A stretch of DNA of 64,000 bases from Tetradesmus obliquus (Eukaryota; Chlorophyta; Chlorophyceae; Sphaeropleales; Scenedesmaceae), in assembly GCA_030272155.1 (NCBI GenBank), contig CP126200.1, forward strand, positions 4,588,001-4,652,000, given 5' to 3'. Both the position numbers and the translations under genes were made by a program. Below are positions 1,591 through 64,000 of this stretch, piece by piece; the stretch's first letter is position 1; every line of letters begins with the position of its first letter. The notes beneath the pieces were generated by a model. The model was not told where the DNA came from and searched no databases. It saw only the letters and a list, made by a program, of their open reading frames with translations.

Positions 1591-4500
1591 ATGCATGACA
1601 AGCTAGAGACATTTGTTGACGTGTGGAGGCTTTTGAGTGCAAGGCAGGATGCGTCGGTCGCCATCCCCGGCACGCTTGGCATCACTCTGTTGCTTGCGGT
1701 GGTAGCAGCATGGGTCGTCGTGAGGCGGTTCACGATGCTGGACTTGCTGGACATCCCTACGCCATGGGGCTCTCCTTTCATTGGGTTGGGGCACTTGCTG
1801 CAGATGGCCCTGCATGTTTCAAACGGGCATGAGCAGTTCCTCAAGTGGCATGAGGTGTATGGGCCCATTGTAAGGCTGCGGCTGCTCTACAGAGATGTAG
1901 TGATCGTGGCAGACCCGCAGGTGGCTTCAGAACTGCTGGGCAAGGGTCCAAATGAGTGCCCCAGGCGCACCCCAGAGTACACGCTGTTCAATGCGGTGGG
2001 TTGAGCGTCATCTCTGCTGCGTGCGTCATCTTTGAGAGACACAGTTTGAAAGGGGGCAGCAGCATCAGATAAAGGTGCATATGCTTCGTGCACAGCAAGC
2101 TTGGGTTATAACCAGGCATATATGCTGCAGCAGCCGTAGCCGCAGCTGGGGTGGTTAATCATTTGGGATGCAGTCCCAATGCACCCCTGTTTGTGTCACC
2201 AGGAGCTCATGACTTGACTTCTCTCACGAAGCACATCGAACCAGCATGCATACTGTGCGAATACCAAATGCCGATCAGGTGCCAGCTGTTGCCAGCAGCA
2301 GCAGTTCTTACATGCGACAGCAACATTCACCTCGTACCAACCCCCAACACCTCAAACTGCTGCTGTTGAGGCAGCCCTGGCCACAGCTGTAGCAATCACT
2401 TTTTGTTTTGTGTTGTGGCCGGCTTGCAGGCACACGGCATGCCTGGGTATGGTGCTATCTTGACAGAGCAGGATGAGGAGCGCTGGAAGGCTATCAGGAG
2501 GGCCATCGCCCCTGCCTTCACACTGTCAGCTGTCAGGTGAGACCAGCCTCCTCTCGTTCCCACATCGAAGCTTGCAGGAAGCTTGCAGGAACTTGCAGGA
2601 CGCTACAAGGAACAGCTGCAGCAGCAGCAGTAGCACCTTGCCACTGAGGCCATCGCCCGTGTGCTTGCACGGTCAGCTGCTAAGCGAGACCAGCCGCGTT
2701 GCAACGAAGCCTGCAGTAAGCTTGCAGGGATGGCACAGGAGCTTGTGACCGAGCTTGCAAACAGCTTGGGGCAACAGCCGCAGTAGCAGCAGAAGCAGCA
2801 GCGTCAGCAGTAGCTGGAACAGTGCTGGGGCTGTGTACATAGTGCATGTACGCCTGGTGTCCACGGTGCTGATGTCCAGCGCTGCTTCACTGCTTGCAGG
2901 GACCTGTTCCCCACCATTGTGACATGCTACTCGGAGGTCTGCAAGCGCATCAGCTCAGGAGAGGCTGTGCACTACAGCAAGCCACGCAGCAGCAGCAGCA
3001 GCAGCAGCAGCAGCGAGCCGGAGGTTTTGATCGACGAGGAGATCTTTGCAGCCACGCTGCGCGTGCTGAGTGACGGCTTCCTGCGCATGCCGCAGCAGGG
3101 CCTGTTTGACGCACACAAGACAGCGGCAGACGCCAGCTCGCTGATTGCAATAACCAACACATTTGTGACGCAGCCCTGGAAGCGCTGGCTGTACTTGGGC
3201 ATGCCCTGGCTGTGCAAGGTGAGCAGCAGCAGCAGCAGCAGCAGCAGCAGCAGCAGCACGAGCAGCTGCAGTGGGATGCAAGGAAGGCGCTTCACTGTAT
3301 GGACAGACACATCATGCAGCCTCCCAAGCATAGCTGAGGACCCACACTTTGAGGAAGACCAACATGTGTAAGCAACTCCCGCAAATCTGCAGCAAATCGT
3401 TACACATACAGCAGCGGCGCCATGCCTGTCATTGCTGTCGCTGCCGGCAGCCGCAGCCCAACCCGCACCACGCAACCTGCCGCCCCTGCAGCCCGTCAAG
3501 CAGCAGCTGCACCTGCTCTCACCCACTCAATCCCGCCTGTCCCTCCCTCACATGCAGGAGAGACAGCCCGAGCTGAGCTGTTTGCAGCTTCCTATTTCAC
3601 CAGGTGTCTGTGGTGGCGTATGCTGCATGAACACTCCGTGTAACCCCTCTTTCTATCTATCCTCACTTGCAGGAGTCGCGCACCTTCCACGCGCAGCGCC
3701 GCCACATGATGTCAGTAACACACCAGATCGCGCAGCACATCGAGTCACTGCGGCCGACTGCATCAGCAGCAGACTTCTCACTAGGAGCCAGTTTGTCACG
3801 GCTGCGGGAGCCATCCAGTGGGCAGCTGTTCTCCACGCAGGCGCTGCAGGCTGAGGTGTTCCTGGAGATTGTAGGGCAGGAGTCGGTGCCCTGGACTGTA
3901 GCCTGGACGCTGTGAGTGCGCTGCTCCTGTGCCGCTTTGTGCAATAGTGTGGTTCGTATGGTGTACGACAGATGTGTGCAAACCAAACCTGTAACAGCAG
4001 CCTGTCACCCTTGCTGCCTGCCTGCATGCATGCCTGCATGCTGTCATCATCGCCATCATGCTGTTCATCAAGCCATAGCAATCACACCATCGGCCTGCCT
4101 GCCTGCCTGCCGGCCTGCCCGCCTGCCTGCCTGCTGCAGCTACCTGCTGACTCAGAACCAACATGCAATCATCCATGCCATATCCACAGCCGTAGCATTC
4201 ACACCGCCTGCCGGCCTGCTTGCCTGCCTGTCTGCCTGCCGTGCCAGCTGCAGCTACCTGCTGACTCAGCGCCATTAAGCAACCATCCATGCCATAGCCG
4301 TAGCCGTAGCATTCACACCTTCGGCCTGCCTGCTTGCCTGCCTGCCTTGCCTGCTGCAGCTACCTGCTGACTCAGCACCCCGAGGCAGAGCAGGCTGTCC
4401 TGCAAGAGCTGGTTGCTGCCGGCCTGCCCTGCAACGGTGACCTGGCGGCGGTGACGGCAGCCCTCAGCATGGACAGCCTGCGCCAGCTGCCCTTTCTAAT

Positions 4501-62400: not shown

Positions 62401-64000
62401 ACAAGGACATTCTGGTTTAGAGGTTTGTAATGAAACACCTGGCGGTGGAGTACAGTGAGGAGCCGGGGCACCTGTTCTTCTGCGAGTGAGCATGGGCTGG
62501 GCTTGCAGGCTTTTACTTTTGACAGATACATAATTCGGCACGGGCACTGCGGTTGCAAGGGCAGCACATGTTGTCTTATTTGCTGATGCCAGGAAAGCAC
62601 CAGCCCCCTTGTGAATATGCTGTATCCCAGTAACGTCCCAGTGGGATTCAGGTCACCTGCACCTGCTCTTTGTCCTTGTGGCGGGCCTGCCGCTTGTATC
62701 AAGTCTCAAGCCTCAGCCGCTCTGCATCCTGCATGTTGGAGCACCACACCTGCTGCATCACTGACATGTCATGCACTGGCCCTGGCTGCGCTGCCCCTCT
62801 CTGCTTGTCCAGGTACCCCCTAGCAGACAGTGACACCGAGGAATACCTACCAGTGGCCACCACTCGCCCTGAGACCATCCTTGGTGACACAGCAGTGGCG
62901 GTAAACCCTGCGGATGAGCGCTTTAAGGCCTACGTGGGCCGGCGCGTGACAGTGCCCATGTCTGGCGGCCGCACCATCCCTGTCATTGCTGACGACTATG
63001 TTGACATGGAGTTTGGCACAGGCGCGCTGAAGATCACGCCAGGTGGGCTTTGAAATTGTGAAAAGGACTCCTTTTCCACCTTGGAGGTGCCGAGAGTCCA
63101 GGCACACCAGATTTCAAGACATGTTTGTTTAAACTGCACAATGCTTTGCAACAGTGTTATCTGCTCATTACGAGCATCACGAGCCTGGGGGTGAGCTGCG
63201 ACGGCAATACCCTGCAGCGCCTGTCACCTGAACAGTACGCACTGCGGCTGAAGCCGACACAGGTTCTGCTTGATGTTTTGCCACAAACATATCATGTGTC
63301 ACATACTTCATTTCGTGTTGCTGCCCTTTCCTGCAGGCCACGACCCCAATGACTATGAGATCGGCAAGCGCGTGGGCCTGGAGACCATCAACATCATGAA
63401 CAAGGACGGCTCACTCAACGCGGCAGCAGGTGCGGCGGCATGGCGGCAGTGTCTGCGCGGGTGGAGCTTGCCAGCTGCTTGCTTGCGCGCATGCCTGCAT
63501 CTCGTGCTCTGCTGCGTACCTGACTGCCTGTCGTGCACCAGCAGTTTTGCACATAGTAATGCATGATGAAAATGAGCACCTAGTATCTGCTGTTTTCTGT
63601 TCCGCACCAGAGTGTTTGGTAAGGCAACTGTAGACAAGCCGCATGGCATCCTCCAGCGTCAACTGCCTGCTCTGTTCTGTCCCTCTGCACCCAAGCCACA
63701 CCTGGCACGTGCACGTGACAACATATATGCTTGGCGCTCTGCTGGGCTGGCGCACTGCAGGCGCGTATGCGGGCATGGACTGCTTTGATGCAGCTAGGGG
63801 TGCTGCTCCTCTCCCGTTGTGTTGCCTTCCTGCCGGCTTCCGCACGTGAATGCAACTCTTCCGCCTGCTGCATGTGGTGTGCTGCAGGCGCGTATGCTGG
63901 CATGGACCGCTTTGATGCGCGGCAGCAGCTGTGGAAGGACATGGAGGCTGCGGGGCTGGTCATCAAGAAGGAGGCCTACACCACGCGGTGAGCGGCAGGC
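59436..64000 (+). CDS. Valyl-tRNA synthetase, 5' part
   Basis: Nine exons in frame: 59436-59628, 60015-60159, 60552-60692, 61073-61142, 61431-61656, 62156-62267, 62813-63042, 63337-63429 and 63888-63987; the gene continues past the window. The first exon encodes a Ser/Arg/His/Gln-rich leader ([17 protein letters not shown]) fit for mitochondrial and/or plastid import. The synthetase then starts [20 protein letters not shown]. The HIGH signature is in [16 protein letters not shown]. Next are [54 protein letters not shown], the editing-domain [18 protein letters not shown], and [19 protein letters not shown]. The enzyme charges tRNA-Val and edits mischarged Thr. The KMSKS loop lies beyond the edge. 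At least six partial exon copies fill its introns. Confidence 0.95.
60347..60424 (+). repeat. Short tandem repeat (CTGCTGTGAACTC-like)
   Basis: About five imperfect 13-15 bp units (CTCCTGCTGTGAA) in ValRS intron 2, just before the decoy of exon 3. Confidence 0.85.
60428..60485 (+). repeat. Decoy copy of ValRS exon 3 5' end
   Basis: GGGAGGAGAGTGGCTTCTT, then CCTGACCCTGGCGCCACTGG and CCCCGC repeat the start of exon 3 (60552) about 125 bp upstream, with substitutions and an extra CTC that breaks the frame. Confidence 0.9.
60756..60805 (+). repeat. Decoy copy of ValRS exon 3 3' end
   Basis: ATGTTCGTGACGCTGCAGGA, then CGTCATGGCCAG, the GTGCGG donor and a CAG run repeat 60661-60710 exactly, 100 bp downstream. 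Confidence 0.95.
61815..61925 (+). repeat. Decoy copy of ValRS exon 5 3' half
   Basis: About 110 bp copy of 61556-61665 (GCGGCTGGGCGCCAGCTG through CAGCTGGCAGAT) with a GTGAGC donor. It would encode [19 protein letters not shown] with few changes. Confidence 0.94.
62332..62490 (+). repeat. Two decoy copies of ValRS exon 6 3' end
   Basis: GACCTGGAGGTGGAGTACAG through GAGGAGCCGGG recurs at about 62338-62385 and 62446-62490. Donor versions GTGAGTGAA and GAGTGAGCA differ from the real donor at 62268. Confidence 0.92.
63756..63800 (+). repeat. Decoy copy of ValRS exon 9 5' end
   Basis: CTGCAG, then GCGCGTATGCGGGCATGGAC and TGCTTTGATGC, matching the true exon start at 63888 (GCGCGTATGCTGGCATGGAC) 131 bp downstream, then diverging. 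Confidence 0.93.

What the first reader, a model, noticed from the sequence alone, without database searches (positions are those of the whole stretch)
4030..63800. Most multi-exon genes carry truncated tandem copies of their own exon-intron junctions
I count about 25 exon echoes in six of the seven well-supported multi-exon genes (P450, DUF2156, TRMO, PB1/BED, DIS3, ValRS) plus the ferredoxin. Each is a 40-220 bp block with one exon edge, its splice site and adjoining intron, repeated on the intron side. Copies of a 3' exon end lie after the exon; copies of a 5' end lie before it. Most keep a usable GTGAG/GTGCG or TGCAG. Divergence ranges from zero to about 20%, so birth is ongoing and not an assembly error. 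Short tandem duplication with one breakpoint in an exon and one in an intron would leave the gene intact and make exactly this pattern, so survivorship explains the geometry. The density implies an unusually active local duplication process, and every echo is a ready alternative splice site. I know of no named description of this.
Basis: partly seen in the sequence, partly recalled or inferred. Interest (0 to 1): 0.9.

Follow-up and report, generated by a model that had tools for sequence, protein, structure and literature searches.

The report
Exon-edge copies scattered through algal introns
In the green alga Tetradesmus obliquus, pieces of a gene's own exon ends, splice signal included, turn up again inside the neighbouring introns, where they decay like junk; this points to an unusually active local copying process and can mislead gene annotation.

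Summary
The genome is Tetradesmus obliquus. In two genes with exact exon structures (DIS3; organellar-type ValRS) 24 of 27 local repeat rows join an exon edge with its splice site to a copy in the adjacent intron; 15 of 42 introns carry an echo. In 304 kb, direct repeats within 800 bp outnumber inverted ones 276 to 4; distances peak at 105-135 bp. Echoes decay neutrally: mismatches 28:27:66 by codon position. 'Random tandem duplication plus survivorship' fits poorly: copies are rarely adjacent, a spacer without clear homology separates most of them, in young pairs too, and in the annotated genes one end of the block lies near the splice site far more often than random placement gives (19 observed, 3 expected). 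In a wider, unannotated set this anchoring is looser. Echoes are patchy: a third gene with 14 introns has none. Best reading: a neutral, template-switch-like local duplication process that prefers exon edges; cause unproven. One echo is translated as an exon in a deposited protein.

The parts
45161..55607 (-). DIS3/RRP44 gene, 22 exons; five echoed exon edges
   Evidence: spliced alignment to UniRef A0A383VI63_TETOB, 1031/1035 identical; edges
59537..64000 (+). Organellar-type valyl-tRNA synthetase gene, part inside the window (continues to G000:C10:4658608); twelve echoed exon edges over the whole gene
   Evidence: spliced alignment to P0001/P0002; tblastn exon map with echo matches; edges
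53144..53202 (-). echo of the 3' edge of DIS3 exon 7 (source 53273-53329)
52167..52254 (-). echo of the 3' edge of DIS3 exon 9 (source 52437-52524); translated as exon 52172-52270 in A0A383VI63
50862..50937 (-). echo of the 5' edge of DIS3 exon 12 (source 50747-50821), starts at ctgcag
49954..49987 (-). echo of the 5' edge of DIS3 exon 14 (source 49811-49844), 34/34 identical, starts at tgcag; the 109-bp spacer 49845-49953 matches the genome only at its own place
48896..49208 (-). 2.5-copy array (period 127) from the 3' edge of DIS3 exon 15 (source 49149-49208)
60429..60490 (+). echo of the 5' edge of ValRS exon 3 (source 60551-60610)
60759..60847 (+). echo of the 3' edge of ValRS exon 3 (source from 60660); one of the few adjacent tandem duplications (period 99, 1.9 copies)
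61703..61726 (+). short echo of the 3' edge of ValRS exon 5 (source 61638-61661)
61814..61937 (+). echo of the 3' edge of ValRS exon 5 (source 61552-61672)
62327..62490 (+). two echoes of the 3' edge of ValRS exon 6 (source 62206-62272)
63755..63791 (+). echo of the 5' edge of ValRS exon 9 (source 63882-63918), starts at ctgcag
32821..33183 (+). three copies with CAG|gtgggt at or near the right edge; likely 3'-edge echoes, gene structure not established
33306..33704 (+). three copies at tgcag|GAAGCAC; likely 5'-edge echoes, gene structure not established
26777..26964 (+). pair with aligned donor ACAG|gtg; gene structure not established
14554..14754 (+). pair with aligned donor ATCAG|gtggg and about 40 bp of intron-side homology; gene structure not established
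14985..15525 (+). 2.5-copy array, period 217; gene structure not established
5887..6041 (+). pair with aligned donor GCAAG|gtgcg beside the P450 profile match (window 5795-5929); gene structure not established

Best explanation
Exon echoes are neutral leftovers of a very active local, direct-orientation duplication process. A stretch of about 25-150 bp that contains an exon edge and its splice consensus exists a second time in the neighbouring intron. In the annotated genes 8 of 19 edge pairs lie 99-143 bp apart, 10 lie 218-324 bp apart and 1 lies 65 bp apart, with 40-278 bp of mostly unrelated sequence between. SHOWN: anatomy, spacing, direct orientation, neutral decay, mixed ages, patchy spread over the genome sample. 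INFERRED: the process is break repair or replication restart by template switching. A broken or stalled strand in the intron re-primes at or near the flanking splice consensus, copies into the exon for tens of bases, and is joined back to the intron. The resulting direct repeat sometimes expands into arrays. The original exon stays intact, so the copies are tolerated and decay. Why exon edges are preferred over intron interiors is the unexplained step; a link to transcription or splicing (R-loops, bound splicing factors) is a guess.
For: 24 of 27 repeat rows in the annotated genes join an exon edge to the adjacent intron; 19 have an intron part of 26 bp or less against 3.0 expected by random placement, maximum 9 in 4000 trials. 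In 17 of 24 echo junctions the 80-bp intron flank beyond the first 6 bases shows no homology at P<0.05, the 34/34-identical echo among them; 5 are clearly homologous (four array copies and the adjacent duplication at 60660/60759) and 2 are marginal at P 0.03-0.05. Gaps: 67 of 276 rows at 40-79 bp, 5 of 276 near zero. Spacer homology does not rise in young pairs. A spacer and a spacer-containing stretch each match the genome only at their own place (that search skips very common words). Direct 276 against inverted 4 within 800 bp. Mismatches by codon position 28:27:66, as expected for one constrained and one free copy (third-position share against 1/2, P 0.18). Donor motif at the proper block edge in 28 of 197 pairs, at the wrong edge in 1 of 197, at the strictest threshold; 38 against 16 at a middle one. 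Of 24 arrays with fewer than 3 copies 17 have between 2.25 and 2.70 (my count), as if a repeat-spacer-repeat unit had expanded; exact two-copy cases without overlap are not in that list by construction.
Against: In the wider, unannotated set 23 of 46 pairs with an aligned strong donor show real intron homology (75% identity or more) beyond 10 bp, so the edge at the splice site is a tendency there, not a rule. In the window alone donor motifs at proper and wrong edges are only 6 and 2 of 37. Acceptor motifs show no orientation: proper 57, wrong 83 of 197 at a middle threshold, 18 and 15 at the strictest, so 'either motif' is 89 against 94 and 45 against 16; CTGCAG is its own reverse complement, which blunts this test. 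38 of 131 spacers show some homology to the outer flanks against 5% expected, so part of the set is decayed ordinary tandem duplication. Interior ends show no obvious microhomology by eye. DNA-only priming at TGCAG does not explain why true acceptors are chosen: 33 of 179 TGCAG in the three genes are acceptors. The 26-bp and 12-bp thresholds were set after seeing the data, and rows of one array are not independent.
Confidence: 0.5

Rival explanations
1. One reading: random short tandem duplications; those crossing an exon-intron junction survive because the gene stays intact.
For: Random placement of the observed blocks crosses a junction in about 9 of 27. A potato gene shows such a junction-crossing tandem duplication (PMC4974935, outline and section 5 read). 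A minority here are truly adjacent (60660/60759) or keep flank homology (38 of 131).
Against: Most copies are spaced; young pairs lack spacer homology as often as old ones; intron-intron pairs too rare and intron parts too short.
Confidence: 0.12
2. Old ordinary tandem duplications whose intron parts were lost by very fast intron turnover while the exon parts were kept similar, for example by conversion from mRNA/cDNA or from the exon.
For: 38 of 131 spacers keep some flank homology; in the five array rows intron columns differ more than exon columns (104 of 625 against 25 of 266, summed); exon-limited conversion would give edges at splice sites.
Against: The codon-position ratio is the plain neutral one; pairs of 95% identity or more, the 34/34 one among them, should keep their spacers and 12 of 17 do not; echo DNA lies in the same intron and should turn over as fast.
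Confidence: 0.15
3. Staggered double-strand breaks with long overhangs, filled in and joined with inserted filler (the spacer), as proposed for Daphnia neointrons.
For: Gives direct repeats around a new segment; Daphnia neointrons carry direct repeats of adjacent exon ends (PMC4202315, passages seen).
Against: Daphnia exon repeats are 4-12 bp, here the exon part is 19-133 bp; the stretches tested have no other match in the genome; no reason for one overhang end to lie at a splice site.
Confidence: 0.15
4. Echoes are functional decoys or poison exons kept for regulation of splicing.
For: Splice dinucleotides intact in 12 of 12 3' and 8 of 12 5' echoes; one echo is translated as an exon in a deposited protein.
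Against: Neutral codon pattern; the DIS3 echo holds 2 of the 4 differences between the window's model and A0A383VI63 in 33 of 1035 residues (P 0.006); intactness is what young neutral copies would show; of the 120 best-listed DIS3 proteins only A0A383VI63 has the segment twice.
Confidence: 0.05
5. Assembly artefact or collapsed alleles.
For: None beyond general caution about short repeats.
Against: Copies differ by 0-29%; one echo is present in a separately deposited protein with its own substitutions; the C1 gene from the same assembly has none.
Confidence: 0.03

Closest known systems
[quoted passage not shown] potato RdRp case, PMC4974935, outline and section 5 read)
   Same: A local direct duplication includes an intron-exon boundary; splice signals are inherited by the copy.
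   Different: Here most copies are spaced rather than adjacent and sit inside an existing intron, the two genes translate without them, and they are frequent in the sample rather than a single case.
Direct repeats in and beside Daphnia neointrons, attributed to staggered double-strand breaks (PMC4202315, passages)
   Same: Direct repeats that include adjacent exon ends; introns gain length and variety.
   Different: Daphnia exon repeats are 4-12 bp at the ends of new introns; here the exon part is 19-133 bp and the splice consensus is copied too.
Templated insertions of polymerase-theta end joining / MMBIR (PMC12426944 and PMC8421209, search listing with start of abstract only; details of the mechanism recalled)
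   Same: Short copies of sequence from near a break inserted nearby.
   Different: Here nearly all copies are in direct orientation and, in annotated genes, concentrated on exon edges.
Introners / introner-like elements (PMC9860276, listing and start of abstract; PMC8469720, passages)
   Same: Add intron sequence and splice sites to many genes.
   Different: Each echo is a copy of its own exon; the spacers tested are single-copy; no dispersed family seen.
Minisatellite / tandem repeat arrays
   Same: Some repeats have grown to arrays (38 in the sample).
   Different: 197 of 276 direct rows are non-overlapping two-place pairs, most with an unmatched spacer.

Membership tests
Tandem genomic duplication (head-to-tail) | Second copy directly adjoins the first | tested here: not met
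   5 of 276 direct rows have a gap between -10 and +9 bp; 67 of 276 have 40-79 bp; a few are adjacent, e.g. 60660/60759
Tandem genomic duplication (head-to-tail) | Whole unit repeated, so the spacer matches the outer flank | tested here: not met
   met for a minority only: 38 of 131 spacers above the 95% null; no increase in young pairs
Intron gain by tandem duplication | A new spliced intron is created | tested here: inconclusive
   ValRS and DIS3 exons give an open protein without the echoes; a deposited prediction splices one echo in; no RNA data
Staggered-break repair with filler | Direct repeats flank a newly inserted segment | tested here: inconclusive
   repeat-spacer-repeat structure met; whether the spacer is new could not be tested, no echo-free allele; no second genomic match found
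Pol-theta templated insertion | Copy templated from flanking sequence near the break | tested here: met
   offsets of 75-284 bp in 145 of 197 pairs
Pol-theta templated insertion | Both orientations occur (recalled feature) | tested here: not met
   276 direct, 4 inverted within 800 bp
Pol-theta templated insertion | Microhomology at the junctions | tested here: inconclusive
   splice consensus at one edge could serve; interior ends show none by eye
Introners | Many similar copies at different loci | tested here: not met
   window 49845-49953 and 63755-63990 have one match each in the genome; of 10 spacers, 2 match other held loci, by CTG-rich or short (at most 31 bp) stretches
Functional decoy / poison exon | Sequence constraint on the copy | tested here: not met
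   codon-position ratio 28:27:66 fits a free copy

The most novel reading that the evidence does not exclude
A mutational process coupled to transcription or splicing: DNA repair or replication in expressed genes copies exon DNA from the splice-site boundary (for example the edge of an R-loop or of a snRNP-protected stretch) into the adjacent intron, so that splice sites are themselves hotspots and origins of local duplication.
Probability: 0.22. Interest if true: 0.92.

Novelty: new variant of a known kind. Interest (0 to 1): 0.7.

Why it matters
Introns are usually thought to lengthen by transposons and random indels (general knowledge). Here 15 of 42 introns in two genes carry copies of their own exon edges, most with intact splice dinucleotides. 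That is raw material for alternative splicing and intron gain, and a direct, countable readout of a local duplication process. The patchiness (none in 14 introns of a comparable gene) and the preference for exon edges make it testable whether splicing or transcription shapes mutation. In practice an echo has already entered a deposited protein: of the 120 best-listed DIS3 relatives only the T. obliquus one has the segment twice.

Tried and rejected
Home-made gene-finding HMM, self-trained and then trained on two genes: drifted or too insensitive. From it I kept only the donor/acceptor matrices (42 introns of DIS3 and ValRS), and printed coding totals. The splice matrices inside my spliced aligner were typed from recall and by eye. 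Acceptor-motif edge test: no orientation signal, blunted because CTGCAG is a palindrome. Splice-like motif at the interior ends of echoes (recursive-splicing idea): none seen. Spacers as a mobile element: not supported. Whole-exon duplication followed by decay: disfavoured because the upstream flank should still match. Pyrimidine tract of true against echo acceptors: 8 cases, not decisive. First spliced alignment of cytosolic ValRS was wrong at the start because the locus lacks the first exons; redone. Literature: searches showed no description of this pattern in the listings (open-access papers only, 8 to 25 rows shown each).

Rows dropped before counts: 276 direct rows of 30-800 bp offset became 197 after removing 53 rows with overlapping copies and 26 near-duplicates. 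Spacer tests used gaps of 30-220 bp (131, 142). The annotated echo exon 52172-52270 was taken out of the DIS3 exon list; ValRS pieces of 40 bp or less and those outside 59530-70700 were dropped, cytosolic ValRS pieces of 25 bp or less.
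Full report
WHAT WAS CHECKED. The finding says that most multi-exon genes in the window carry truncated tandem copies of their own exon-intron junctions. 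The window is G000:C10:4588001-4652000 of a 104.66-Mb, 17-contig genome. It is Tetradesmus obliquus: a spliced alignment of the DIS3 gene matches UniRef A0A383VI63_TETOB at 1031 of 1035 residues, and contig C1 has exactly the length (11144458) of the longest contig listed for the T. obliquus protein OEZ86_011841.

THE REPEATS ARE REAL AND LOCAL. With microsatellites masked, the window gives 51 self-matches, 48 direct and 3 inverted. The window plus 24 loci of 10 kb (304 kb) gives 330, 318 direct and 12 inverted. Within 800 bp it is 276 direct against 4 inverted; offsets of the 197 non-overlapping pairs peak at 105-135 bp with a weaker second hump near 240 bp. The 24 loci are not a random draw: 20 were chosen at round-number positions or beside the window, and 4 came from a stratified random list. 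Density is very uneven: 0 to 28 non-overlapping pairs per 10-kb locus, variance 7.6 times the mean.

EXACT GENE STRUCTURES. DIS3 has 22 exons (plus one annotated echo exon) at window 45161-55607, minus strand. The organellar-type ValRS has 22 exons from window 59537 to beyond its end, plus strand. Cytosolic ValRS on C1 has 15 exons in the 6838 bp held. All repeat rows of the first two genes were printed with exon and intron marked.

WHAT AN ECHO LOOKS LIKE. Of 27 rows in these genes, 24 pair an exon edge with the adjacent intron and 3 are intron-intron; none copies an exon interior alone and none has exon in both copies. In 12 of 12 rows holding a 3' exon end the other copy lies downstream, and in 12 of 12 holding a 5' end upstream. 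They touch 17 of 84 exon edges and 15 of 42 introns. The third gene has no repeat row in 14 introns (Fisher P 0.012; one gene only). At profile level the same shows on other chromosomes: reading the 39 matches of PF00133 and the 94 of PF00067 by eye, seven neighbouring same-strand pairs share a profile start with the extra copy upstream or a profile end with it downstream; one pair is ambiguous and one locus complex.

ECHOES ARE NEUTRAL. In exon-echo alignments the mismatches by codon position are 28, 27 and 66 over 431, 427 and 425 sites. A free copy against a constrained exon predicts 1:1:2. The third-position share (66 of 121) does not differ from one half (P 0.18) and differs from one third (P 1e-6). 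Array copies are included, so the sites are not all independent. Two of the four differences between the DIS3 model and A0A383VI63 lie in the 33-residue echo exon (P 0.006). Of the 120 best-listed of 2216 DIS3 relatives only A0A383VI63 has this segment twice, so the annotated exon is probably a prediction error; no RNA was available. That A0A383VI63 comes from another strain's assembly is an inference from its accession and its substitutions.

MOSTLY NOT SIMPLE TANDEM DUPLICATION. Three results. First, the gap between copies is rarely near zero: 5 of 276 rows between -10 and +9 bp, 67 between 40 and 79 bp. In the two genes the 19 non-array edge pairs have gaps of 40-278 bp, 10 of them 40-109 bp. 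Second, in 17 of 24 echo junctions the intron flank beyond the copied splice consensus shows no homology between source and echo at P<0.05. Five are clearly homologous (four array copies and the adjacent duplication at 60660/60759) and two are marginal (P 0.033 and 0.046). Third, if missing spacer homology were decay, young pairs should keep it: 5 of 17 pairs of at least 95% identity do, against 11 of 24, 6 of 34, 6 of 29 and 10 of 38 in the older classes from oldest to youngest. Still, 38 of 131 spacers show some flank homology against 5% expected, so a minority look like decayed ordinary tandem duplications. A 109-bp spacer and a 236-bp stretch holding another match the genome only at their own place, in a search that skips very common words. 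Among 24 arrays with fewer than three copies, 17 have between 2.25 and 2.70 (my count), as expected if a repeat-spacer-repeat unit expands; exact two-copy cases without overlap are outside that list by construction.

ONE EDGE AT THE SPLICE SITE. In the two genes 14 of 21 non-array rows have their proper edge within 12 bp of a true splice site and 19 of 21 within 26 bp; with donor and acceptor exchanged as a control, 0 and 1 (my tally). Random placement of the same 27 blocks in the three genes gives 3.0 edge pairs with an intron part of 26 bp or less (maximum 9 in 4000) and 7.6 intron-intron pairs; observed are 19 and 3. Survivorship removes the exon-only classes but leaves intron-intron ones, so it predicts about 54% edge pairs among survivors; 24 of 27 is too many (P 1e-4), and 19 of 24 with short intron parts is too many again (P 6e-6). 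Thresholds were chosen after seeing the data.

AGAINST A STRICT RULE. In the 197-pair set a donor-like site lies at the proper edge in 28 pairs and at the wrong edge in 1 at the strictest threshold (52 against 35 at the loosest). Acceptor-like sites show no such asymmetry: 18 against 15 at the strictest, 95 against 149 at the loosest. CTGCAG reads the same on both strands, which blunts that test, but it gives no support either. In the window alone donors stand 6 against 2 of 37 pairs. Among 46 pairs with an aligned strong donor, 12 end within 10 bp, 11 more extend only with chance-like similarity, and 23 extend with at least 75% identity. Anchoring is thus strong in the two annotated genes and looser elsewhere. 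Most of the 197 pairs have no established gene structure.

MECHANISM. The best reading is a neutral, direct-orientation template-switching process acting near exon edges (confidence 0.5 as a whole; the anatomy is far surer than the cause). DNA-only priming at short shared words does not explain the choice of true splice sites, since only 33 of 179 TGCAG and 39 of 112 GTGAG/GTGCG in the three genes are splice sites. A coupling to splicing or transcription would, but nothing here tests it.

KNOWN WORK. Potato RdRp shows one junction-crossing tandem duplication that made a new intron (PMC4974935; outline and section 5 read). Daphnia neointrons carry 4-12 bp repeats of exon ends attributed to staggered breaks (PMC4202315; passages). 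A Sphaeropleales genome paper gives T. obliquus introns 462 bp on average and modelled its genes with AUGUSTUS (PMC5966456; passages). Nothing in the listings describes echoes of this kind.

Noticed in passing
window 9342-9469 and 42079-42207: 129-bp inverted repeat pair at 96% identity, 33 kb apart; looks like a dispersed element.
   Followed up: no
G000:C8:3939499-3940746 (minus): Four overlapping P450 profile matches (230-309, 266-310, 226-290, 234-294), each listed in an open frame of 511 residues; might be in-frame repeats of a P450 segment.
   Followed up: no
L036 and L035 (G000:C13, around 3960-3962 kb): Another class I synthetase gene rich in local repeats: 18 and 5 rows in 3.1 kb each, against 0 in three C1 loci and 0 in three of four C5 loci (the fourth, L030, has 4 rows of a 30-bp-step array).
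   Followed up: partly
L017 1-6039: Large tandem arrays of period 274 and 351 bp, satellite-like, different from echoes.
   Followed up: no
L018 (minus-strand frames at offsets 1561 and 5843): Two open frames of equal length and composition 4.3 kb apart, possibly a transposable element; no direct pairs within 800 bp in this locus.
   Followed up: no
window 20933-21272, 28090-28195 and many others: Very high density of CAG/GCT microsatellites, including a 340-bp GCT tract and a perfect 106-bp CTG tract.
   Followed up: no
UniRef A0A383VI63, residues 312-344: A deposited T. obliquus protein contains an echo translated as an exon; other proteins of this proteome may carry the same kind of error.
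   Followed up: partly
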